Positions 51,033 through 64,000 of a DNA stretch of 64,000 bases are shown piece by piece. The DNA is from an uncultured Pseudomonadota bacterium (GTDB taxonomy: Bacteria > Myxococcota_A > UBA796 > SXON01). Location of the stretch: the NCBI GenBank assembly GCA_903875225.1, contig CAIQVJ010000110.1:1-64000 (forward strand), given 5' to 3'. Within the stretch, counting starts at the first letter, position 1, and every line of letters begins with the position of its first letter. Under the pieces are notes generated by a model. That model was not told the DNA's origin. It searched no databases and was given only the letters and a program-made list of their open reading frames with translations. The position numbers were made by a program, and so were the translations under genes.

Positions 51033-51641
51033 ATGGCCGATGTCGATGACGATGGCATGGACGTGCTGTGCGCGCTCCCATCCTGCGGCAGGCGGTTCAC
51101 GCCACGACGCGCTGACGCGCGGTACTGTGGCGGCGCTTGTCGCGCGCAGGCCAGTCGAGAGCGACGGGAGTTGGGTGCCGTGGCCAAGGTCCCTGGGCCA
51201 GCCGCCCGCTCGGAGCAACGGGAGCGGGGTGGTCGGGTCCCGTCACCGCCACCGCCCGGACGGCCCCGGCGATACCAAAGGGGCGCCTCGCCTCGATCCT
51301 CCGATCACGACATCTGGGACGAGATTCGCGCCTTGCGTGCCGAGTTGACCGCCGATCGTGCGGAGCGCGAGTCGCAGGGCGAAATCTGCTCGAACTGGCG
51401 GGAACAGAGCGACGAGCGCTCCTTTCTCGCCGAAGGCAGGTTCGACGAAGCGATCTTGCGGCTCACGAAGGCCACGACGGTCGTGATGCGCCGGGTGACG
51501 AGTCTGCAAAGGAGGAACCCGGTTGCTGGCGACGGGGAACGCGACGAGCATGAGGCCGCGATCCTTGAGATCATCAGGCGCCTGAAGAAGGTCGAGGCCC
51601 AGGTCGAGACGCTCTCCGGTGCGGTGTTGCGCTTCCTCTGA
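51033..51641 (+). CDS. Zinc-finger and coiled-coil protein of unknown function
   Basis: The 202-residue protein has an N-terminal treble-clef-like finger (CALPSCGRRFTPRR, then YCGGACR), near residues 13-38. It resembles the small FCS/DUF2256-type fingers found beside plasmid and phage genes. A disordered Pro/Arg linker (about 50-90) and a long helix with coiled-coil heptads (about 95-200, RRLKKVEAQVETLSG) follow. No enzymatic motif. It is tightly linked to the XRE gene upstream and lies 28 bp before the nuclease-like gene, so the three are likely co-expressed. Confidence 0.6.
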   Translation: MADVDDDGMDVLCALPSCGRRFTPRRADARYCGGACRAQASRERRELGAVAKVPGPAARSEQRERGGRVPSPPPPGRPRRYQRGASPRSSDHDIWDEIRALRAELTADRAERESQGEICSNWREQSDERSFLAEGRFDEAILRLTKATTVVMRRVTSLQRRNPVAGDGERDEHEAAILEIIRRLKKVEAQVETLSGAVLRFL

Positions 51642-51669
51642 CGACGGGCGCGGTTACCTCGCGCCGCTC

Positions 51670-53022
51670 ATGGCCCGACCACCCAAAGCGCAGCCGGCGG
51701 ACGTCTTGGTGGCGCTTCAGGCAGCTGTGCTCAAGGGCGCCCTCCTGGAAGAGGTGGCGAGCGGCCTGCTTCGTGATCTCGGGTTCGACGGTATCCGGCG
51801 GCAACGCTCAGGCAGCCAGTACGGTTTCGACCTTTCGGCGACGCGCCAGGGACCGGACGGTCCGGAGCGCTGGGTATTCGAGTGCAAGAACCTCAGCGGC
51901 GACGTCACGATGAACGACCTCGCTCCGAAGCTCATCTGGCACGACGGTGGGACCCTCGACGCCTTCGTGCTCATCAGCGTCACCGACGTGTCCAACGATG
52001 TGCTCCACTTTCTTGAGCAGCACTCGCTCCCGATGGAAATCCAGGTCTGGTCCGGCGAGGCGCTCGCGCGAATGGTTGCTGGAAGCGCTCGGGCCCTCGC
52101 CCGCCTCGGGTTGAGCTCCAGACCCTGGACGGGTCCAGCACCCCAGCGGTTGCGATTCCCCTCGAGCGGGCCTGTGTCGCTCGACGTCGTTCACCACGAT
52201 CATCCACCGGGGTCTTTCCACTACGTCGTTCTGGACGACGCTTCGGTCGCGAAGAGCTACGTCCACGACGGGCGATTTGTCCTCGATCTCTTCCTTGGGC
52301 GCAGAGTCGCGGGATCGGTGGTGGTGCGGTCCATCGACGTGATTCCCACCCGGCATCACGTGCCCTCCGGGCGGGTGCTGTGGCTGCTCAAGCCGAAGGG
52401 CCTGTTCGAGCCGCATCGGGTCGAGTTTTCGCTCTCGCCCACGCTTGCCCGCACGCCGTTGCTCGGCAGCACCTGGCTGTCGCTTGACAGCCCGCAAGAC
52501 GGGTGCCTGCAGGCGATCCTTCAGGCCGTTGAGGCACCCGGACTCTACGAGTTTCACATCGAGGCGTTGGCCGGCAGCGCGTCGGGGGCGACGGCCTGTC
52601 GATCGGCGACCTTCCTGCTTCACGAGCCGGCCCCGGACGCGAACCTGCTCAAGCTGGTGGTCCGCGGCAGGCACTTCGACACCGGGGCGCAGGCGGTGCT
52701 CGACTTGCCAGACACCCAGTGGGACCTGCTCCGAAGGGAGTCGCAGCGCGAGGACTCAGCGCTGTTTCTCGGCCCCACTGGCTACGAGATCCAGCAGGGC
52801 GTTCGTGACGAGACCTGGTTGATCCGGCGTCAACGGCTCATCGCCACCGAGCATGGGATGGCGGCCCGCGACAACGACCCGAGCGAGGTTTTCATGCGCC
52901 TCGGCGGCCATGTCGATGAACAGCGATACACCTTGAGCACCGCGCTGAGTCGTGCTCGGGGCACACATCCCTCGTTCACGCTGCTTGAGCGGCAACTGGA
53001 ACGCCGCGGATTCCGGCGCTGA
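51670..53022 (+). CDS. PD-(D/E)XK nuclease-fold protein of unknown system
   Basis: From ATG 51670 the product is 450 aa. The N-terminal 150 residues look like an Mrr-type restriction nuclease. They have VASGLLRDLGFDGIRRQRSG, Asp54 in YGFDLS and Glu71-x-Lys73 in VFECKN, giving the D...ExK active site. The C-terminal 300 residues are beta-rich with repeated Leu/His motifs (DVVHHDHPPGSFHYVV) and match nothing I recognise. They may form a sensor or effector-binding part. The frame is open to 51619, which would overlap the previous gene. It ends 5 bp before the convergent XRE gene. It is probably a defence or competition gene of the island; no partner methylase is adjacent. Confidence 0.6.
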   Translation: MARPPKAQPADVLVALQAAVLKGALLEEVASGLLRDLGFDGIRRQRSGSQYGFDLSATRQGPDGPERWVFECKNLSGDVTMNDLAPKLIWHDGGTLDAFVLISVTDVSNDVLHFLEQHSLPMEIQVWSGEALARMVAGSARALARLGLSSRPWTGPAPQRLRFPSSGPVSLDVVHHDHPPGSFHYVVLDDASVAKSYVHDGRFVLDLFLGRRVAGSVVVRSIDVIPTRHHVPSGRVLWLLKPKGLFEPHRVEFSLSPTLARTPLLGSTWLSLDSPQDGCLQAILQAVEAPGLYEFHIEALAGSASGATACRSATFLLHEPAPDANLLKLVVRGRHFDTGAQAVLDLPDTQWDLLRRESQREDSALFLGPTGYEIQQGVRDETWLIRRQRLIATEHGMAARDNDPSEVFMRLGGHVDEQRYTLSTALSRARGTHPSFTLLERQLERRGFRR

Positions 53023-53027
53023 CGGGA

Positions 53028-53411
53028 TCAGCCGGCGTCCGGTCGCCGGAGTGCGGCCGAGACCGCCCCTTCCACGGCGTTGAGGTGCGCGCGAAGCAAG
53101 GCGCGAACGTGCGTAAGCTCGTCGTCGGACAAAGGCCTCAGCAGCGCGAGAATGCGATCCAGTTCGGCGCGCGGGGGCGGAGCCGCGGTTGAAAACTCCG
53201 TCAGGAACCCGTCGATGTCGGTGCCCAGGGCGATGGCGATGCGCTCGACCCACTCGAAGCTCGGGACCTGCGCACCCCGCTCAAAGCGGCTCACCGTCTC
53301 CACCGCTACGCCCGACCCCAGCCGCTCGGCGAGCTTGGCCTGAGAGAGGCCAGCGCTCACCCGCAGCTCACGAATTCGCTTCCCGACGCGCTTGCCGACG
53401 TTGCTTGCCAT
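53028..53411 (-). CDS. XRE-family transcriptional regulator
   Basis: The 127-residue protein has an N-terminal helix-turn-helix (LSQAKLAERLGSGVAVETVSRFERG, read as LSQAKLAERL and VSRFERG around residues 22-48). A short helical C-terminal domain follows, with LRPLSDDELTHVRALLRAH. Divergent from the small gene that precedes the helicase/methylase pair, with a well-formed promoter between them. It may control the defence operon. Confidence 0.8.
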   Translation of the reverse strand: MASNVGKRVGKRIRELRVSAGLSQAKLAERLGSGVAVETVSRFERGAQVPSFEWVERIAIALGTDIDGFLTEFSTAAPPPRAELDRILALLRPLSDDELTHVRALLRAHLNAVEGAVSAALRRPDAG

Positions 53412-54028: not shown

Positions 54029-57000
54029 TTGCAGCACCCCCGCGAAGGCATGATGGCCGTCGTCCGAAACCGGCGGGCAATGATCACGGCGGTCGTGCCG
54101 TTCTCGGCTGACGAGGCCGGGATGTTGCACCTCGTGGACGTCGAGTACACAGACGGCTTCGGGGCCGAGTCGGACCAGGTGCTCTGGGAGGTCGAGCCGG
54201 GAAAGGAGGTCCTGGAGCCGTCAGCCCTGCCGCGGGTGGACGATAGCGCGCCGATGGAACCGCGCGAGTTCGACGCGATGGTGCGGGCGGCACGCTGGTC
54301 GGCGCTCACGCCGTCGTTGCCGTTCTCGGGGCTGGCCGAGGACCGGCCGCCGCTGGCCGCGCCGCTGTACGGGGCGATCCACCCCGAGGCGTACCAGCTC
54401 GTGCCGGTGTTGAAGGCGTTGGAGATGCCTCGCGTGGCGTTGCTCCTGGCAGACGCCGTGGGCCTGGGCAAGACGATCCAGGCGGGCATGGTCCTCCGCG
54501 AGCTGATGTTGCGGCGTCGGATCCGCCGGATCCTGGTGATCTGCCCGGCTGCGCTACGGACGCAGTGGCGCGATGAGATGCAGGACAAGTTCGCGCTGCC
54601 CTTCGACGTCGTGGACCGGCCGCAGACGTTGAAGCTGCAGAAGGAGCTGGGGGTCGACGCGAACCCGTGGCGCACACACGAGCGCATCGTGGCGAGCTAC
54701 CACTACCTGAAACAGCCGGACGTCCTTGAGCAGTTCCGCAGCTCCGCCGAGCCGGGCGAGGACGGGCGACTGCGCTGGGACCTGCTCGTGGTCGATGAAG
54801 CGCACAACCTTGCGCCCGCGAGCTTCGGCACGGACTCGGACCTCGCGAAGATGCTGCAACGCATCGCGCCGTGGTTCGAGCACCGGCTGTTCCTGACCGC
54901 GACGCCGCACAACGGACACACGCGCTCGTTCTCGGGCCTGCTGGAGTCGCTCGATCCCGTGCGGTTCACCCGCAAATCCACGCTCGACGACGAGGACCGA
55001 AAGCGCGTCGGCGAGGCCGTGATCCGTAGGCTCAAGAGCGAGATCAACGCGACGTACACCGCCCAAAACGAGGCGCCGCGGTTCTCCGAGCGTCTCGTTC
55101 AAGCGCTCCCGGCGTTGCACTTCGGCCAGGTCGAGCGGCTGCTGTTGCAGGCCGTCCGGGACTTCCGGAAGGCGCTGCGCGCCATCGTGCGAACGGCAGC
55201 CCCCGCTGACCGGACCGCCGCGGCTTTCGCCACTGAGGTCCTACAAAAGCGCCTGCTGTCCGGCCCGTGGGCGTTCGGCCAGAGCTGGCTCTCGCTGCTC
55301 GACGGACTGACACCCGCGGGGGCTGACGAGGGCGGCGCCAGCGCAGAAGCCGTAGCGCGCGCGAGTTCCGCCTCCGCCGATGACAGCGACGACGATGCCG
55401 AGAAAGAAAGCCGGCACCGTCACGCTGGAAAGGTCGTCGGGGCTTGGATGCGCCAGTGGAAGGACCACGTCGCCGTTGAGATCGACGCGGTGACGAAGCT
55501 TGTGGACGCGCTCGGAGTCACCCGCGTGCCGCCTGGCCTGGACCTCTCCGAGCATCAGGCCGCGGTCGTGGCGCGTGCGCCGGGCGTCAAGGCGGATGCC
55601 CGCTGGCGCGCTCTCGAGACGCTGCTCGATGAACGTGTTCGCGGCGGTCAAGGCTGGAAGTCCGACGAACGCATCGTCATCTTCACCGAGTACCTGGCCA
55701 CGCTCGACTACGTGCGTGCTCGCCTCCGCCAGAAGTACGGACCCCCGCAGGGTTCGAACGACTGGCTGTTGACGCTGTTCGGGGGCATGAACGACCCAGA
55801 GCGCGACGCGGTGAAACGCGCGTTCAACAACCCGAAGAGCAACGCTCGCATTCTCGTTGCGACGGACGCCGCCGGCGAGGGTCTGAACCTCCAACGAGCC
55901 TCGCGCCTGCTGCTCCACTGGGACATCCCGTGGAACCCCGGCAAGATGGAGCAGCGCAACGGGCGCCTGGATCGGCACGGCCAGGAGCGCGACGTCGAGA
56001 TCTTCCACTTCGACAGCGCAGATGATGCGTCGATGGCGTTCCTCGGGCACGTCCTACAGAAGCGCAGCCGGACCCGGGAGGACCGCGTGGTGACCGACGA
56101 GATCTTCGCCGACGCCATCCTGGTGCACTTCGCCGGTGAGGAACTCGCTGGGGCCGACGCGCTGGATCGCTCGATCCGCGCCGCCCGGATCGCGAACGCT
56201 GACGTCGCCGAGGACCTGCCCAGCGTGCCTGGCGCGACCATGCCCGGGAAGGAGGACCAGGCCCGGCTGGACGCCCTCAAGGCAGAGCTGGATCTGTCGC
56301 CCGCGACGTTGCGCGAGACGCTGGAGACCGCGCTGGCCGTGGAGTCCGGTCGCCCGCGGCTGACCCCAGACGGCGCTGGTCGAGACCGCCTGACTACCCC
56401 GATCCCGCCGCTGTGGAACGCGCTCGTCGACGACACGTTGCGGGACCGGGACACGGGCGGGGCGGTCGCCGTCGTGTTCGACCCCGCGCACTACGTCAAG
56501 CTCTACTCGGGCCGCCCGGTCTACACGCCGGAGCCTGACTCCCGGCTGCTGCACCTCGGGGATGCGCTTTACCACAAGGTCATGTCCACGTTCGCGCGCT
56601 ACCGTTTTCCAGGCGGGCCGAGCGCCGGCACGCGGTGGACCGTGCGGGCCGGCGACGTTCCGGCTGGCGTGGACGCACTCATCCTGCTCACCATCGAGGA
56701 GATGGCGGTCAACGACCTGCGCGAGCCCTGCCACCACTGGGTGCGGACCATCGCGTTGCCGGTTCGCGGCGGGAAGTTGGGCGACCCGTTGCCGCACACC
56801 GCGGCGGGCGCCTGGCGCGGCACGACCAGGCTCGGGGATCGCAACCTGGCCCGCGACCTGTGGCAGGACGTCCGCGACCCGGTCAAGGCCATCGTCCCGG
56901 CGGTGCAGAAGGCGTTGACTGTCCAGCTTCGGGACCGGCTGAAGGTATCCGGAAAGATCGTCCTTGAAACGGAGAAGAAGCGCTTTGAGAAGCGCCGGAA

Positions 57001-57307
57001 AGAGCTAGAGCGCGCGATCGGCGACAACCAGATCAGCAAGCTGGAGAAGGAAGCCGCAAAGGCGCGGGACATCGCGCGCCAGGTCTCGATGTTGGGTGAG
57101 CAGAACCAGGAGCGGGCGAAGGCGCTCGCTGACCTCGAAGCCGAGATCTCGCTGCGCAGGAACCACTACGATCAGGTTCAGGAGCGCCTCGCGCACGAAG
57201 AGAAGCGCACGATGGACCTGATCCTGCCTCACCGGTACAAGCTGCGCGGCGAAGCGCGCGTCTACCCGCTCGCGGTCGAGATCCGGCTGCCGGGAAGCTC
57301 GGCATGA
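54029..57307 (+). CDS. drmD: SNF2-like helicase, DISARM DrmD-like
   Basis: The 1092-residue protein is an SF2/SNF2-type ATPase. It has motif I ADAVGLGKTIQ (Lys148), DEAH box VVDEAHN (256-259) and motif III LTATPHNGHT. The C-terminal helicase domain has TDAAGEGLNLQRA (near 612-624) and QRNGRLDRHGQ (near 643-653). A coiled coil covers about 985-1070, before the end of the protein. This length, the N-terminal GMMAVVRNRRAMI start and the overlapping downstream adenine methylase gene match DrmD of class 1 DISARM. The TTG at 54029 is the ORF start; ATG 54050 or 54053 with GAAGG before it is also possible. Confidence 0.75.
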   Translation: MQHPREGMMAVVRNRRAMITAVVPFSADEAGMLHLVDVEYTDGFGAESDQVLWEVEPGKEVLEPSALPRVDDSAPMEPREFDAMVRAARWSALTPSLPFSGLAEDRPPLAAPLYGAIHPEAYQLVPVLKALEMPRVALLLADAVGLGKTIQAGMVLRELMLRRRIRRILVICPAALRTQWRDEMQDKFALPFDVVDRPQTLKLQKELGVDANPWRTHERIVASYHYLKQPDVLEQFRSSAEPGEDGRLRWDLLVVDEAHNLAPASFGTDSDLAKMLQRIAPWFEHRLFLTATPHNGHTRSFSGLLESLDPVRFTRKSTLDDEDRKRVGEAVIRRLKSEINATYTAQNEAPRFSERLVQALPALHFGQVERLLLQAVRDFRKALRAIVRTAAPADRTAAAFATEVLQKRLLSGPWAFGQSWLSLLDGLTPAGADEGGASAEAVARASSASADDSDDDAEKESRHRHAGKVVGAWMRQWKDHVAVEIDAVTKLVDALGVTRVPPGLDLSEHQAAVVARAPGVKADARWRALETLLDERVRGGQGWKSDERIVIFTEYLATLDYVRARLRQKYGPPQGSNDWLLTLFGGMNDPERDAVKRAFNNPKSNARILVATDAAGEGLNLQRASRLLLHWDIPWNPGKMEQRNGRLDRHGQERDVEIFHFDSADDASMAFLGHVLQKRSRTREDRVVTDEIFADAILVHFAGEELAGADALDRSIRAARIANADVAEDLPSVPGATMPGKEDQARLDALKAELDLSPATLRETLETALAVESGRPRLTPDGAGRDRLTTPIPPLWNALVDDTLRDRDTGGAVAVVFDPAHYVKLYSGRPVYTPEPDSRLLHLGDALYHKVMSTFARYRFPGGPSAGTRWTVRAGDVPAGVDALILLTIEEMAVNDLREPCHHWVRTIALPVRGGKLGDPLPHTAAGAWRGTTRLGDRNLARDLWQDVRDPVKAIVPAVQKALTVQLRDRLKVSGKIVLETEKKRFEKRRKELERAIGDNQISKLEKEAAKARDIARQVSMLGEQNQERAKALADLEAEISLRRNHYDQVQERLAHEEKRTMDLILPHRYKLRGEARVYPLAVEIRLPGSSA

Positions 57308-60300
57308 CCCTCGCCCACGCCTGGTCCGCCCTGCGCCACGGCGGAAACCTGCTGTCACCGGCGGCGTTGGATGGACTCCCGCGCCGGGACCGCCCGCCCG
57401 GGTACCTCGCCGACAGGCTTCGCGGCGCGATCGTCGACCTGCCGACGGACGGTCCAGCTACCGGAGACACGCTCTCCACCCTGCTCGACGTGGTGCTCGA
57501 TTCGCTGTGTGGGCTGCCGGCGGGCTGGCGCAAGGGTTCGCAGGTCACGGCTTCCGACGGCCAGAAACTGCTGGACGGTACGGTGTTGAAGCCCCGCCGG
57601 ATCTTCGACGCGCCGGACTGCGACCGGGTCGCTGTGTTCACGACGCCGGTCGCGCGAATTGGCGTAGGTGCCGGGCGGCGTCCGGTCGCGCAGGTGATCG
57701 AGTACCTCCGGCGTTCAAGTACGCCGTTTGGCCTGCTGACGAACGGTCGGGAGTGGCGGCTGGTCTGGGCCGACGCCGACGCGCTGGCCTGGGTCGAGTG
57801 GGACGCCGAGCGGTGGTTGAACGCCGAGGTGCTGTCCGACGAGCTTGGGGTGCTGATCACGGTGCTGTCGGCCCCGGCGCTGTCCCGGTCGCGCGGCCCG
57901 TCTGGTGTTGCATCAGGCGCACTCTCGCCACTGTTGACCGCGATCCGGGACACGCGTCGCGGCCAGGCGAAGCTGTCGAAGGAGCTGGGCGAGCGCGTGC
58001 GCCAGGCCGTCGAGACCTTGCTGCGGGCGCGGGCGCCGGTGGTCAGCCCGGTGTGGGAGCAGCACGTCGCGGCCGATCTGTACGTCGCGGCCTGCCACAT
58101 CGTCATGCGGCTGGTGGTGGTGTTGTTCGCGGAGGCGCGGGAGCTGCTGCCGGTCGACAGCCCCGTCTACCACCAGGCCTACAGCGTGCGCGGGCTGTTC
58201 GACCAGCTCTCCAACATGCCGTCCGAGCGTCGTCGCAGGCGCCAAGCTGCGTGGCCCCGGCTGCTGGCCCTGTTCCGGTTGTTGCACCAGGGATCGTTGC
58301 ACCCCTCCGTGATGGTCGAGGCTTACGGCGGCGAGCTGTTCAAGGCCGGTGACCCGGCGGGAGACGGCGTCCAGCGTGCCCTCGCGTTGCTCGAAGTCAT
58401 GGCCGATTCGCCCGACGACGACGCGATCTTCTACGTGCTGGAGCGCATCTCCCGCACGATGGTTCGGCTGCACGCCGGCGGCCCGGTGGTCCCCGCCCCG
58501 GTCGACTTCACTGAGCTGACCAGCGAGTACATCGGCATCCTCTACGAGGGCCTGCTCGACTATGAGCTGCGTCGCGCCGGGGCCGAGCCCATCGTGTTCC
58601 TGGCGCTTGGGGACCAGCCCGCGCTACCGCTCGACCGGCTGGAGGGCATGGACGACAAGGCGCTCGCCGCGCTGGTCGAGAAGGCCAAAGTCAAGAAGGC
58701 CGCGAAAGAGGAGGAAGGCGACGAGGCCGAGGAGGGTGCGGAAGACGAGGACGAGCCCGAAGCAGACGACGCCGAGGATCCAGAACTGACAGGGGTGACG
58801 GGCGAAAATCCGATGACCGAGTACGTCGTGGACGACGTGCGGACAGTCGCTCGCAATCGTGCCGAGGCCTGGGGACGACGCGCCGCGCTGGTCGGCAAGC
58901 TCGTCAAGAAGGGCAAGGCGAACGACCCGGCGCACATCCGTCAGCTCGACTCTGCCGCCCGCCAGCTCATCGCAGACGTGAAGCTCCCCGGCGAGCTGTT
59001 CCTCGTGCGCTGGGGCGGCACGCGCAAGGGTGCGGGCACGTTCTACACGCGCCCGCAGCTCACGATGCCGACGGTGCGGCGGACGTTTGAGCCGTTGCTG
59101 TACACCGGGGCCGGGGCTGACGGAACGGAGGCGATGCAAAGCGGCGTTCCGCTGCCCGATCTGGAACGGCAGCCCGCGGAGCAAGCCGCCCAAAAAGAGG
59201 GCGGACAATCACGGCAGATCCGGATCCCCGAGGAGATCCTGGCGCTCAAGGTCTGCGACCCGGCGATGGGGTCGGGCAGTTTTCTTGTCGCGGCGTTGCG
59301 GACGCTGACGGCTGCGGTCATCGAGTCGCTGCACGTGCATGGCCGGATCACGACGGTCAACGGGGCGACGACCATCCGATGTGACGCCTTTCCTGCGGAG
59401 GATCGTAGGGTGTCCGTCGGCTCGGTGCCCGGTGCCGCGGATGACAGGCTGGAGGCGATGGTTCGTCGCGCGGTCGTCGAGCACTGCCTGTACGGAGTGG
59501 ACCTCGACCCGCTGGCCGTGGAGCTGGGTCGCGTGGCGCTGTGGGTCGAAACGCTGGACAAACGCCTGCCGTTCACGTTCCTCGACCACAAGCTGCGGTG
59601 CGGCAACGCGCTGATCGGCACCTGGCTCGACCGATTTCGGGACTACCCGTTGCTGGCGTTCGACCGGGAGAGTCCGGACAGGAAGTGGAAGGGCGTCCAC
59701 CACGTCGCGGACACCTGGCACGACGCGCTCAAGGACAAGCGCGCGACCGTGATCGCAGAGCAGGCCGAGCTGCTGTCGAACCAGGTCCGGTTGATGCCGG
59801 GGACGTCCGACGAGGAGCTGAAGGCGGCTGTGGCGCGGGTGCGTCGGCTGTACCGCGAGCTGCGTGACGTCTCGGCCGGGAAGCCCGAGGAGCGTGCTCG
59901 CATCTGGCTCAAGCGCATCCAGCCGGACGAGGCGCTGGCGGTCGTGCGGGCGGCTTTCGACACCTGGTGTGCGCTATGGTTCTGGCCCTTGGATCGCATC
60001 GCAGAGGCACCGGGGCCGCGTGAGCTGCACGCGCCGAGCGAGGCCGCGAAGGGCGTGGCGCGGGGCGTTCGGGAGCGGCTGCGGTTCTTCCATTGGGAGC
60101 TGGAGTTCCCGGACGTGTTTACCGAGGAGGGGGCGGGGTTCGACGCGGTGGTGGGGAACCCGCCGTGGGAGATCCAGAAGCCCAACTCCAAGGAGTTCTT
60201 TTCGAACCACGACCCGCTGTACCGGGCGTACGGCAAGCAGGAGGCGTTGGCCGTCCAGAAGCGCATGTTCAGCGAGAAGTCCGAGACCGAGGACGAATGG

Positions 60301-62109
60301 CTGGCCTACAACGGGGACTTCAAGGACAAGGGCAACTTCGTCCGGTTCGCGGGCGAGCCGTTCGGGGACGGCAAGGTCGCAGGGCACGGCGGCGGCGACA
60401 TCAGCCTGACGAACGGGGCGAACGGCGCCGACCTCCATCGAAAATGGCGCGGGCGACGCGGGAAGTTCACCGGGACGAGCGATCCGGCGCACCCGTTTCG
60501 TCACCAGGGCTCGGCGGACCTGAACACGTACAAGATGTTCTTTGAGGCTGCCTGGGCGCTCCTGAAACAGAACGGCCAGTTCGGCCTGCTCCTGCCCAGC
60601 GGGTTGTACAGCGATCTCGGGAGTGCCGATCTGCGCCAGCTGTTTCTTGCTGCCGGGGGCCTGCGGCTGCTCTACGCTTTTCAGAATGAGAAGTTCATCT
60701 TCGGCGACGTCCACCACAGCTTTAAACAGGCGTTCTTCATCGGCTCAAAAGGTGGAACGCCCGCGGCGCTGAGGGCTGTGTTCAGACTAGGTCCTGGCGA
60801 CTCCCCGGAAGCGGATGACATTCCCGAGGACATGGAAGGCCTGACGCGTGCGGTGGAGATCCCACGCGAACTCATAGACCTACTGTCGCCCGGTAGCTTG
60901 GCGGTGTGGGAGGTGCGACAGCCGCAAGACATCCGGGTGCTCGGGCAGCTTCACGCTGCGAAGCAGCGAGTTCAGGACTACCGAGACATCGGCGTCCGGT
61001 TCACCCGAGAGCTCGACAAGACCAACGATCACAAACTGCTCACGTCCCGCGCCGCCATAGAGCACAGCGGCCTGCTCCAGCGGGGCGAGGATGTGCGACA
61101 GACGGACACCATTCGCCGCCTCTTCGCGCTCGGATGGACCCCGATCTGGGAGGGGAAGTCCTGCCGCTTCGACTACTGGACGTCGCAGCCCGAGTGGTTC
61201 GCCCAGCTGGGTGACGTGCGAAAGTACGCGACCGGGGCATTCCCGTTCGGGTTTCGGCGAATTGCGCGAAACACCGACGAACGGACGCTTATCGGTTGCG
61301 TGGTGCCGCAGGGGGTGCCAACGATGTACTCGATTGAGGTTTGCCGCGGGGCCACCCGCTCGGTATCAGTCTCGATCTACGCGGCGATGTCCAGTTTCTG
61401 TGCCGACTGGATGATGCGGTTTCAGGTCTCGTCGTCAGTGGCGATCTCAAGCCTGCACAGCCTACCGCTGCCGTCCAGCTGGTCGATTCTCCAGCGGGCG
61501 GCCGAGGCCCTGTTCCAGGCTCCGAGCGAAGCCTCGCGGGTCCCGAGGCGCTGCATGCTCGACGCCATCGTCGCCGTGCTCTACGGCCTCGACCGCGACG
61601 ACTTCGCGTGGATCCTCCGCGACTGCGACCACCCCGCCGCGCGCCTCTCCGAGAAGGGCTTCTGCCGCACCCTCGACCCCAAGGGCTTCTGGCGCGTGGA
61701 CAAGGCGTCCGACCCCGAGCTGCGCCACACTGTGCTCTCCCTCGCCGCGTTCGACGATCTGCATGCCGCCATCGGCCTCGCCGGGTTGCGCGATGCCGGC
61801 ATCCAGGCCTTCTGCGACCAGAACGACGGCGACGGCTGGACGCTCCCTGAGTCGCTGTGCCTCGCAGAGCTGGGCCTCACGCGGTCGGTGGACGTCGGCG
61901 TCTACGATGAGCGGGCGATGGTGGCCCAGCCGGTGCGGGCGCGGATGGGGGAGCGGTTTTTGGACTGGCAGTTGGCGCAGACGGTGGAAGAGAGCTGGGC
62001 GGAGTGTGAGGGACATGCGCGGGCGATTTTGGAGGGGTCCGCTCGTTCCGAGCTCCCGCCAAAGCCTCAGGCACCTCGTGACCTCGGCCCGCTCTTCCGG
62101 CCGCGCTAG
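57304..62109 (+). CDS. drmMI: N6-adenine DNA methylase, DISARM DrmMI-like
   Basis: The 1601-residue Eco57I/PglX-type methylase has an N-terminal HsdR-like or N6_Mtase helical region. SAM motif I is VCDPAMGSGSF (residues 650-660), and GVDLDPLAVELGRVALW follows as motif II region. The catalytic NPPW is at 952-955 (VVGNPPWEIQKPNSKEFF). A target-recognition and helical C-terminal part has HPAARLSEKGF. An acidic low-complexity stretch near 465-495 (EEEGDEAEEGAEDEDEPE) separates the halves. It probably marks self DNA for the DISARM-like system. It starts 4 nt inside the helicase stop (ATGA). No frameshift seen. Confidence 0.8.
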   Translation: MTLAHAWSALRHGGNLLSPAALDGLPRRDRPPGYLADRLRGAIVDLPTDGPATGDTLSTLLDVVLDSLCGLPAGWRKGSQVTASDGQKLLDGTVLKPRRIFDAPDCDRVAVFTTPVARIGVGAGRRPVAQVIEYLRRSSTPFGLLTNGREWRLVWADADALAWVEWDAERWLNAEVLSDELGVLITVLSAPALSRSRGPSGVASGALSPLLTAIRDTRRGQAKLSKELGERVRQAVETLLRARAPVVSPVWEQHVAADLYVAACHIVMRLVVVLFAEARELLPVDSPVYHQAYSVRGLFDQLSNMPSERRRRRQAAWPRLLALFRLLHQGSLHPSVMVEAYGGELFKAGDPAGDGVQRALALLEVMADSPDDDAIFYVLERISRTMVRLHAGGPVVPAPVDFTELTSEYIGILYEGLLDYELRRAGAEPIVFLALGDQPALPLDRLEGMDDKALAALVEKAKVKKAAKEEEGDEAEEGAEDEDEPEADDAEDPELTGVTGENPMTEYVVDDVRTVARNRAEAWGRRAALVGKLVKKGKANDPAHIRQLDSAARQLIADVKLPGELFLVRWGGTRKGAGTFYTRPQLTMPTVRRTFEPLLYTGAGADGTEAMQSGVPLPDLERQPAEQAAQKEGGQSRQIRIPEEILALKVCDPAMGSGSFLVAALRTLTAAVIESLHVHGRITTVNGATTIRCDAFPAEDRRVSVGSVPGAADDRLEAMVRRAVVEHCLYGVDLDPLAVELGRVALWVETLDKRLPFTFLDHKLRCGNALIGTWLDRFRDYPLLAFDRESPDRKWKGVHHVADTWHDALKDKRATVIAEQAELLSNQVRLMPGTSDEELKAAVARVRRLYRELRDVSAGKPEERARIWLKRIQPDEALAVVRAAFDTWCALWFWPLDRIAEAPGPRELHAPSEAAKGVARGVRERLRFFHWELEFPDVFTEEGAGFDAVVGNPPWEIQKPNSKEFFSNHDPLYRAYGKQEALAVQKRMFSEKSETEDEWLAYNGDFKDKGNFVRFAGEPFGDGKVAGHGGGDISLTNGANGADLHRKWRGRRGKFTGTSDPAHPFRHQGSADLNTYKMFFEAAWALLKQNGQFGLLLPSGLYSDLGSADLRQLFLAAGGLRLLYAFQNEKFIFGDVHHSFKQAFFIGSKGGTPAALRAVFRLGPGDSPEADDIPEDMEGLTRAVEIPRELIDLLSPGSLAVWEVRQPQDIRVLGQLHAAKQRVQDYRDIGVRFTRELDKTNDHKLLTSRAAIEHSGLLQRGEDVRQTDTIRRLFALGWTPIWEGKSCRFDYWTSQPEWFAQLGDVRKYATGAFPFGFRRIARNTDERTLIGCVVPQGVPTMYSIEVCRGATRSVSVSIYAAMSSFCADWMMRFQVSSSVAISSLHSLPLPSSWSILQRAAEALFQAPSEASRVPRRCMLDAIVAVLYGLDRDDFAWILRDCDHPAARLSEKGFCRTLDPKGFWRVDKASDPELRHTVLSLAAFDDLHAAIGLAGLRDAGIQAFCDQNDGDGWTLPESLCLAELGLTRSVDVGVYDERAMVAQPVRARMGERFLDWQLAQTVEESWAECEGHARAILEGSARSELPPKPQAPRDLGPLFRPR

Positions 62110-62159
62110 ATGTCCGACCACGCTCATCTTTCGTCCATCCCACGCCCTCAGGAGCCCGC

Positions 62160-63254
62160 ATGAAGCCCACAACGACACCCGAAGAAATCGAAGGCCTCGG
62201 CGGCGACGAGGATGCGAGCTGGGGCGACTACCCGATCGACACCGTGCTAATCCGAACGGCACCCAGTACGGTCTTTGAGGTCGTGCGTCGGATCGACAAG
62301 GGTTCGTTCATCATGGCGCCGGAATTTCAGAGGGACTTCATCTGGGAGGACGACAAGCAGAGCAAACTGATCGAGTCCGTGATGATGCGCATCCCGCTGC
62401 CGGTCTTCTACCTGGCGGAGGACGAGAACGGGAACATGGTTGTTGTAGACGGGCTTCAACGGCTCTCCACCTTCCACCGGTTCATGAAGAACCAGCTTCG
62501 GCTGAAACTGCCTGAGCAAGAGCAGCTCAACAAGAAGCGATTCAGCGACCTCTCGCCGAAGCTACAGAACCGGGTAGAGGACTGCGTCCTGACGCTCTAC
62601 ATCGTCGATGCGAAGGTTCCCGAGCGTGCTCGGCTCGACATTTTCGAGCGCGTCAACAGCGGCGTTCCCCTGACGCGGCAGCAGATGCGGAACAGCCTCT
62701 ACACCGGCCCGGCCACGCGCTTCTTGAAGGAGGAGTCGGAGACCTCGATCTTCATGCAGGCCACCGGCGGCAGCCTCCAGTCCTCGACAATGCGCGACCG
62801 CGAGTTCGTAAATCGTTTTTGCGCCTTTCAGCTACTATCGCTGGACGTGTACAAGAAGGAGATGGACGACTTTCTAGCGCGTGCGCTCACCGCGATGAAC
62901 AAGTTGTCCGCGGCCGATCTCGCGACCCTGTCCGCGGAGTTTCGGAACAGCCTGCGGAACAACCACGCGGTCTTCGGCGAGCACGCTTTCCGGAAGCACG
63001 AAGCCGGACAAACGTACCGGAGCGTCCTGAATGCCTCGTTATGGGACGTGATGATCACCGGGCTCTCTCGGATTCCCGAGAGCGAGGTGATCGCAAGGGC
63101 TCCGCTCCTGCGCGAACGGTTCTTCGCGGTCATGAGGGACGGCGGCTTCAACAACGCGATCACGTACGGACCGAACAGCGGCAACCAGGTGCGCCACCGG
63201 TTTTTGGTCATGCAGCAGCTGCTCGGAGAGGTATTCCATGCTTACACGCCTTGA
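62160..63254 (+). CDS. DUF262 (GmrS/ParB-like) protein
   Basis: The 364-residue protein has the DUF262 core: APEFQRDFIWEDDKQSKLIESVMMRIPLPVFYL (split by eye at APEFQRDF, WEDDKQSKL, MRIPLPVFYL) and the DGQQR-type motif VDGLQRLST (Asp97-Arg101, with Leu for the first Gln). FERVNSGVPLTRQQMRN completes it. The domain hydrolyses or binds nucleotides in GmrSD type IV restriction and in BrxU, usually with a partner HNH DUF1524 domain that is absent here. It lies 50 bp after the methylase and overlaps the ATPase gene by 17 bp, suggesting an accessory two-gene module. Its role is unknown. Confidence 0.8.
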   Translation: MKPTTTPEEIEGLGGDEDASWGDYPIDTVLIRTAPSTVFEVVRRIDKGSFIMAPEFQRDFIWEDDKQSKLIESVMMRIPLPVFYLAEDENGNMVVVDGLQRLSTFHRFMKNQLRLKLPEQEQLNKKRFSDLSPKLQNRVEDCVLTLYIVDAKVPERARLDIFERVNSGVPLTRQQMRNSLYTGPATRFLKEESETSIFMQATGGSLQSSTMRDREFVNRFCAFQLLSLDVYKKEMDDFLARALTAMNKLSAADLATLSAEFRNSLRNNHAVFGEHAFRKHEAGQTYRSVLNASLWDVMITGLSRIPESEVIARAPLLRERFFAVMRDGGFNNAITYGPNSGNQVRHRFLVMQQLLGEVFHAYTP

Positions 63255-64000
63255 CATCAAGCACTTCAAGTGCTTTGAGCTTCTGAAGCTGCCACTGGCT
63301 CCACTGACTCTTCTTTCCGGTTCGAACGCATCCGGGAAGTCCTCGGTACTTCAAGCGCTGGTCCTGCTGCACCAGACTATGCGCGAGCACGAGTGGTCCA
63401 CCCGCTTGATGCTCAACGGGCAAGCAGTTCGCCTGGGGACCGTGTTGGACGTGGTGGACAAGGTTCACGGGCGCAAGGCCATCGAGATCGGGGTGGTCGA
63501 CGACGGTGGTAGCGCGCATTGGACCTTCACTGGCGAGCGCGCAGAGATGTCGATGGCGGTTGAGACAGTGGTGGCCGACGGGGCGACGGAGGCTCAGCCG
63601 GCCACGCTTCGTCACTTGGTGCCAGCACTCGACTCCGCGCTCGCCCAACGGATTCGCGACCTCACCTACATTACCGCAGAGCGCGTGGGCCCGCGGGAGG
63701 TCTACCCGATGGAAGATCGGCAGGTGACTCGCGTCGTGGGTCCACAGGGTGAGCACGCGGTCAGCCTGTTGCACTGGGGGCGGGACGAGGTCGTGTTGGA
63801 GGCGCTGGCCCTCAAGGGCGTTCCGCCGACCCGCCTCCGACAGGTCGAGGCCCGAATGCGCACGTTGTTCCCCGGCTGCGGCCTTGTTGTGCAGCAGGTT
63901 CCTCAGGTAAATGCGGTGACGTTGGGCCTGCGAACATCCGACGACACCGATTTTCATCGACCCATCCACGTGGGGTTCGGTCTGACACAGATCTTGCCGA
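63238..64000 (+). CDS. DUF3696-like AAA ATPase (partial, runs off window)
   Basis: The first 254 residues of an SMC/ABC-type AAA_15 family ATPase are visible. The start MLTRLDIKHFKCFELLKLPL leads to Walker A GSNASGKSSVLQA (Gly28, Lys34). A later LTYITAERVGPREVYP strand resembles the DUF3696 family, and HVGFGLTQILP near the cut edge resembles the ABC-signature approach. The start overlaps the DUF262 stop, so the pair is translationally linked. Similar OLD-like or DUF3696 ATPases act as sensors in several defence systems. The C-terminus, with the signature and Walker B regions, is outside. Confidence 0.8.
   Translation, partial: MLTRLDIKHFKCFELLKLPLAPLTLLSGSNASGKSSVLQALVLLHQTMREHEWSTRLMLNGQAVRLGTVLDVVDKVHGRKAIEIGVVDDGGSAHWTFTGERAEMSMAVETVVADGATEAQPATLRHLVPALDSALAQRIRDLTYITAERVGPREVYPMEDRQVTRVVGPQGEHAVSLLHWGRDEVVLEALALKGVPPTRLRQVEARMRTLFPGCGLVVQQVPQVNAVTLGLRTSDDTDFHRPIHVGFGLTQILP

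What the first reader, a model, noticed from the sequence alone, without database searches (positions are those of the whole stretch)
54029..64000. Left half of a class 1 DISARM-like anti-phage locus carrying an inserted DUF262 + ATPase pair
Sequence shows a SNF2-like helicase overlapping a very long Eco57I-type adenine methylase, the drmD-drmMI order of class 1 DISARM. A DUF262 gene and a DUF3696-like ATPase then follow, overlapping by 17 bp. If drmA, drmB and drmC come next, the pair sits inside the operon and could be a built-in sensor or second restriction layer. If they do not, this is a different helicase/methylase/DUF262 system.
Basis: partly seen in the sequence, partly recalled or inferred. 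Interest (0 to 1): 0.8.

Follow-up and report, generated by a model that had tools for sequence, protein, structure and literature searches.

The report
ARMADA phage-defence operon with swappable cargo
The genes belong to a recently described bacterial anti-virus operon called ARMADA, not DISARM, and a second complete defence system (Menshen) sits inside it, in a gap that in other bacteria is either empty or holds other defence and toxin genes, which suggests that these operons carry exchangeable extra weapons.

Summary
Reading the contig past 64000 gives one co-directional run: ArmA/DrmD-like helicase (54029-57307), adenine methylase (57304-62109), DUF262 (62160-63254), AAA/DUF3696 ATPase (63238-64365), a third cassette gene (64346-65335), then a 1977-aa DruE/YprA-type helicase (65397-71330). 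No DISARM drmA, drmB or drmC was found. Gene content and order are those of ARMADA (Bell et al. 2025, PMC12458937). The "DUF262 + ATPase pair" is a complete Menshen cassette (NsnA, NsnB, NsnC; 345-372 bits each).

New here: the armB-armC junction is a cargo slot. Of 47 loci from many phyla with both genes on one contig, 20 are empty and 27 filled (0.46-20.7 kb), with AbiE, DarTG, DRT3, XisHI, HEC-01, GmrSD and other modules; the armA-armB junction is filled in only 4 of 63. A same-genus relative has a 92%-identical ArmC but other cargo and a swapped methylase recognition domain; a second close pair shows the same. Slot state changes at least 13 times on the ArmC tree.

Function is inferred: ARMADA as primary restriction, cargo as backup layer. 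Embedded auxiliary effectors are published for BREX, so this is a new variant of a known kind.

The parts
54029..57307 (+). armA: DrmD/BrxHII/RapA-like SNF2 helicase, 1092 aa (an ATG start at 54050 is also possible)
   Evidence: PADLOC DrmD 610 bits; NCBIfam NF038317 625.6 > 610; Walker A GLGKT, Walker B DEAH; 33% identity, 120 bits to E. coli ATCC 8739 ArmA
57304..62109 (+). armB: Eco57I/type IIG-like adenine methylase, 1601 aa; 4-bp overlap with armA
   Evidence: PADLOC PDLC03622 1034 bits vs DrmMI 395; NPPW and DPAMGSG; 82 bits to E. coli ArmB
60541..61535 (+). exchangeable region of armB (residues ~1080-1410), presumed target-recognition domain
   Evidence: 18-48% identity to the same-genus relative L105 inside a protein otherwise ~96-100% identical in most blocks up to residue ~1050 and ~92% after 1412
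62040..64000 (+). cargo slot: DNA that does not align with the same-genus relative; it continues past the window to contig position 65393, 4 bp before the armC ATG
   Evidence: blastn alignment stops at 62040 (last ~22 codons of armB) and resumes at 65393
62160..63254 (+). nsnA (Menshen): DUF262/GmrSD_N protein, 364 aa, motif DGLQR
   Evidence: PDLC03877 NsnA 372 bits; Pfam GmrSD_N 1.8e-24
63238..64000 (+). nsnB (Menshen): OLD/RecF-like AAA ATPase with C-terminal DUF3696, 375 aa; cut by the window end, true end 64365 on the contig. Beyond the window on the same contig and strand follow nsnC 64346-65335 (329 aa, PADLOC NsnC 345 bits) and armC 65397-71330 (1977 aa, DruE/YprA-type helicase with MZB, Vsr-like and S24 domains)
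   Evidence: PDLC03878 NsnB 357 bits; AAA_15 3e-23, DUF3696 6.4e-15

Best explanation
This is an ARMADA anti-phage operon (armA-armB-armC) with a complete Menshen system (nsnA-nsnB-nsnC) nested between armB and armC. That junction is a recurrent, exchangeable cargo slot in this ARMADA clade. Shown: the genes, their order, the slot and its turnover. Inferred: ArmB marks self DNA by N6-adenine methylation, and the ArmA and ArmC motors with ArmC's Vsr-like nuclease act on unmarked phage DNA. Also inferred: the cassette, read from the same transcript, is a second effector layer that acts when the primary layer fails or is inhibited. In that layer NsnA (DUF262) would be the NTP-dependent sensor/regulator, NsnB the OLD-type ATPase, and NsnC the third, fold-unknown part.
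For: Gene identities. Homology to a tested E. coli ARMADA locus (L210; ArmA/B/C 120/82/141 bits); definition and anti-phage activity of ARMADA: PMC12458937. Slot: ArmB|ArmC gap filled in 27 of 47 loci against 4 of 63 for ArmA|ArmB, Fisher p = 3e-9 (gaps). At least 19 of the 27 inserts hold a defence, toxin-antitoxin or restriction-type gene. Exchange: own vs same-genus L105 and L126 vs L166/G392; 13 changes of slot state on the ArmC tree, at least 6 forced by starred branches. Cassette G+C 60-63% vs 68% for core genes. Spacing fits one transcript: 50 bp, -17 bp, -20 bp, 61 bp. NsnABC also occurs without arm genes in the stretches read around L041, L043, L046, L048, L050. Backup modules built on OLD ATPases are described inside BREX loci (PMC12839542).
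Against: No expression, phage or co-dependence data. The E. coli proteins are distant (long branch), so the ARMADA type (I or II) is not settled, and armD is absent here. Cargo is so varied, and so often missing, that it need not be coupled to ARMADA at all. The 47 loci are the nearest relatives of this ArmB, not a random sample, and some are close to each other. The Vsr assignment rests on a conserved motif plus a weak fold match.
Confidence: 0.7

Rival explanations
1. Passive nesting: the armB-armC junction is merely a permissive place within a defence island. Cassettes arrive by homologous or illegitimate recombination, ride on the operon's promoter and work independently of ARMADA.
For: Cargo is very heterogeneous and absent in 20 of 47 loci. 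NsnABC is found alone elsewhere. Some inserts hold transposase- or recombinase-like genes and genes on both strands (G383, G391). No flanking repeats of 10 bp or more.
Against: Strong bias for this junction over armA|armB, intact core genes, mostly co-directional and tightly spaced small cassettes, and cargo dominated by defence and toxin-antitoxin genes.
Confidence: 0.45
2. One reading: left half of a class 1 DISARM locus with a built-in DUF262-ATPase sensor.
For: DrmD score just above the NCBIfam cutoff, class-1-like order of helicase and methylase.
Against: No drmB or drmC, and DrmA profiles score only 65 bits or less against the downstream helicase; that helicase is DruE-like and carries its own MZB domain; only it passes the MZB cutoff in the genome; the methylase prefers another profile.
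Confidence: 0.03
3. The cassette is an addiction or guard module: toxin-antitoxin-type or abortive modules kill the cell if the operon is lost or its proteins are disabled, as PrrC guards a type I restriction system (analogy from general knowledge).
For: Many cargoes are toxin-antitoxin systems: AbiE, DarTG, MNT/HEPN plus ParE, PIN. OLD-ATPase modules such as PARIS sense anti-restriction proteins (PMC12839542).
Against: Menshen is known as a self-standing defence system, and several cargoes (DRT3, GmrSD, HEC-01) are not classical toxin-antitoxin systems.
Confidence: 0.2

Closest known systems
ARMADA (Bell et al. 2025 preprint, PMC12458937)
   Same: ArmA-ArmB-ArmC homologues in A-B-C order; single YprA/DruE-like helicase with DUF1998 and a Vsr-like tail
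   Different: No ArmD here; a cassette between armB and armC, not mentioned in the main text of that paper, whose E. coli ATCC 8739 locus has armB and armC abutting; an extra S24 domain on ArmC; distant from the E. coli type II proteins
Menshen (NsnA-NsnB-NsnC)
   Same: All three subunits, in order
   Different: Nested inside another defence operon
BREX and BREX-related loci with embedded auxiliary/backup effectors (Rakesh & Krishnan 2026, PMC12839542); BrxU in BREX
   Same: A methylase-based primary system carrying OLD-ATPase, GmrSD, HEPN or PIN modules within or next to the core locus
   Different: No PglZ or BrxC seen here; the insertion is at one fixed junction of ARMADA, with islands of up to 20.7 kb and TRD exchange shown in close pairs
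Class 1 DISARM (drmD-drmMI-drmA-drmB-drmC)
   Same: DrmD-like helicase followed by a large adenine methylase
   Different: drmA, drmB and drmC missing
Druantia (DruE)
   Same: Closest profile family of the last helicase
   Different: Only ~350 bits, and no Druantia partner genes

Membership tests
ARMADA | BrxHII/RapA-like helicase (ArmA) | tested here: met
   DrmD and BrxHII profiles; 120 bits to E. coli ArmA
ARMADA | PglX-like DNA methyltransferase with NPPW (ArmB) | tested here: met
   NPPW at residue 952; 82 bits to E. coli ArmB
ARMADA | Single YprA-like helicase with DUF1998/MZB, closest to Druantia (ArmC) | tested here: met
ARMADA | C-terminal Vsr-type nuclease on ArmC | tested here: inconclusive
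   Conserved PD...DG...HG motif in 8 sequences; fold match to homing endonuclease I-Bth0305I (a Vsr-like enzyme, from general knowledge) only at prob 0.89, E 0.36; no Pfam hit
ARMADA type II | ArmD (GajB-like helicase with RelE-like domain) after ArmC | tested here: not met
   No E. coli ArmD match in own locus; present in L094, L109, L156, L168
Menshen | NsnA, NsnB and NsnC together | tested here: met
   372, 357 and 345 bits to PADLOC models
DISARM class 1 | DrmD and DrmMI | tested here: inconclusive
   DrmD met; methylase fits IIG model better than DrmMI
DISARM class 1 | separate DrmA and DrmB (DUF1998) | tested here: not met
DISARM class 1 | DrmC (PLD nuclease) | tested here: not met
   Downstream gene 71373-73115 matches VPA1262_N (96 bits), with an HxR(x4)D motif, but no DrmC model
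Druantia | DruE with Druantia partners (DruA-D, DruM/F/G or DruH) | tested here: not met
   Only DruE-like match; no partner profile hit among neighbours scanned
BREX | PglZ and BrxC | not tested
   No PADLOC hit among neighbours scanned; no genome-wide search made

The most novel reading that the evidence does not exclude
ARMADA operons have a dedicated effector slot: the core supplies sensing and self-marking, and the slot takes interchangeable effector or guard modules (Menshen here) that are functionally coupled to the state of ArmA-C, perhaps through DNA-damage-triggered cleavage of ArmC's LexA-like tail.
Probability: 0.25. Interest if true: 0.8.

Novelty: new variant of a known kind. Interest (0 to 1): 0.62.

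Why it matters
It gives a place where new defence modules can be found systematically (several occupants match nothing known), and natural swap pairs with nearly identical cores that let one test whether nested modules are coupled to the host operon or only carried by it. It also extends the layered-defence idea from BREX to ARMADA.

Tried and rejected
DISARM reading: rejected. Recurrent DUF262-ATPase pair inside the operon: not supported; Menshen appears once among 47 slots, with DUF3696 ATPases in L101-L103 and a GmrSD in L168 as nearest analogues. Site-specific integration: no shared 10-mers flanking the cassette in own or sister locus. NsnC fold: AlphaFold model pLDDT 78.5, no PDB fold match at E <= 0.001. 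DNA search for a close E. coli armC: no match; the E. coli locus was then fetched by position. Loci with methylase but no DruE within 10 kb first looked like counter-examples; 13 of 15 genomes do carry the helicase, six on the same contig 10-21 kb away. The dedicated Menshen paper (PMC12065111) and the paper with DOI 10.1016/j.chom.2022.09.017, which I took to be the Menshen discovery paper, are not held. Supplements of PMC12458937 could not be read, so cargo may be shown there.

Full report
Observation. The SNF2-like helicase (54029-57307) overlaps the methylase (57304-62109) by 4 bp. The DUF262 gene (62160-63254) overlaps the ATPase (from 63238) by 17 bp. The window is G000:C110:1-64000 of a 124,900-bp contig, so the right side could be read; positions above 64000 below are contig positions, which continue the window numbering.

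What follows. nsnB ends at 64365, nsnC is 64346-65335, and a 1977-aa helicase is 65397-71330. PADLOC names the three cassette genes NsnA (372 bits), NsnB (357) and NsnC (345), i.e. Menshen (Menshen's DUF262 and OLD-type components are discussed in PMC10952713). The helicase is DruE-like (350 bits) with DEAD, MZB (DUF1998) and S24 domains. No DrmB or DrmC was found. Only this helicase passes the MZB cutoff in the genome; one sub-threshold match lies on contig C91.

The core operon. The combination of BrxHII/DrmD-like helicase, PglX-like methylase and YprA/DruE-like helicase defines ARMADA (PMC12458937). I fetched the E. coli ATCC 8739 ARMADA locus; own proteins match ArmA, ArmB and ArmC at 120, 82 and 141 bits, clearly homologous but distant. 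ArmD is missing here but present in L094, L109, L156 and L168. The type is therefore left open.

The slot. A scan of about 85,000 species genomes with an ArmB alignment gave 77 loci, most with ArmA directly upstream. Counting loci where ArmB and ArmC lie on one contig, 20 have them nearly abutting (gap up to 361 bp) and 27 have an insert of 0.46-20.7 kb. The six largest (10.0-20.7 kb) were found because the helicase lay beyond the first 10-kb flank. The armA|armB junction holds more than 300 bp in only 4 of 63 (Fisher p = 3e-9).

Cargo identities from profile searches: Menshen (own); HEC-01A-like ATPase plus an unknown 408-aa protein (L105); HEC-03 (L101); DUF3696 ATPase (L103); HEC-01 (L099); DRT3a/b reverse transcriptases (L118); XisH/XisI (L121); MNT (L122); dynamin-like GTPase plus helicase (L126); AbiE (L127, L137, G392); Schlafen AlbA_2 (L145); dCTP deaminase-like (L146); DarT/Macro (L147); MNT/HEPN plus ParE (L157); T5orf172 (L163); GmrSD (L168); PDC-M23B plus IIG enzyme (G384); a second DrmD-like helicase and MAD3-like ATPase (G379). 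L094, L156, L165, L176, G383 and G391 are unresolved or weak.

Turnover. Against the same-genus relative L105, DNA identity is 90-91% through armA and most of armB, breaks across ArmB residues ~1080-1410 (presumed TRD), resumes for the last part of ArmB, breaks from 62040 to 65393, and resumes 4 bp before the armC start. The relative also carries a DUF1016/YhcG nuclease gene between armA and armB. L126 and L166/G392 show the same double exchange. On the ArmC tree the slot state changes at least 13 times, 6 forced by starred branches; the labels are only weakly clustered. Cassette genes have lower G+C (60-63%) than the core (68%). The closest NsnABC relatives found (L048, 66/65/41% identity) lie without arm genes in the 20 kb read.

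Mechanism. Shown here: anatomy, slot and turnover. From PMC12458937: E. coli ARMADA protects without growth arrest and needs the helicase and methylase motifs. Inferred for this locus: ArmB modifies self DNA; ArmA and ArmC act on unmodified DNA; the Menshen cassette is a second layer on the same transcript. PMC12839542 proposes this kind of role for OLD-ATPase and GmrSD modules inside BREX loci, so the idea is not new; its occurrence as a fixed, exchangeable slot in ARMADA appears to be, as far as the held literature shows.

ArmC tail. In 15 of the 47 ArmC proteins the C-terminus carries an S24-like domain; the serine (GxSM) and lysine (TxK) are invariant in an 8-sequence alignment, and the AlphaFold model (pLDDT 72) matches lambda CI, LexA and UmuD' (best E 6.7e-5). 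DNA-damage-dependent cleavage is a conjecture.

Limits. The survey is biased to near relatives of this ArmB; many genomes are metagenome-assembled; start codons are mechanical; library dates limit names; paper supplements were not readable.

Noticed in passing
contig 65397-71330 (L003:5397-11330), residues 1843-1970: S24 (LexA/lambda-CI-like) domain with intact Ser-Lys dyad fused to the C-terminus of ArmC; present in 15 of 47 loci and not mentioned in the main text of the ARMADA paper.
   Followed up: partly
L045:10674-17599: A type I restriction HsdR-like protein with the same S24 tail lies directly upstream of NsnA, NsnB and a distant NsnC-like gene.
   Followed up: partly
L105:8303-9487; also L114, L128, L169: A second, rarer slot between armA and armB; in L105 it holds a DUF1016/YhcG PD-(D/E)XK nuclease gene.
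   Followed up: partly
contig 71373-79411 (L003:11373-19411): Downstream neighbours: VPA1262_N-type PLD-like protein, unknown 615-aa protein, RtcR/CARF-sigma54 activator, VWA protein and a kinase-like protein.
   Followed up: no
contig 95881-96966 (L004:15881-16966): A second DUF262 gene (161 bits to NsnA) on the same contig, beside a sigma54-type activator on the other strand.
   Followed up: no
51619-53022 and 53028-53411: An Mrr_cat restriction endonuclease-like gene and a divergent XRE-type regulator lie just left of armA.
   Followed up: no
L105:14386-15612: 408-aa slot protein with no Pfam or PADLOC match, paired with an HTH-AAA ATPase: a candidate new defence pair.
   Followed up: no
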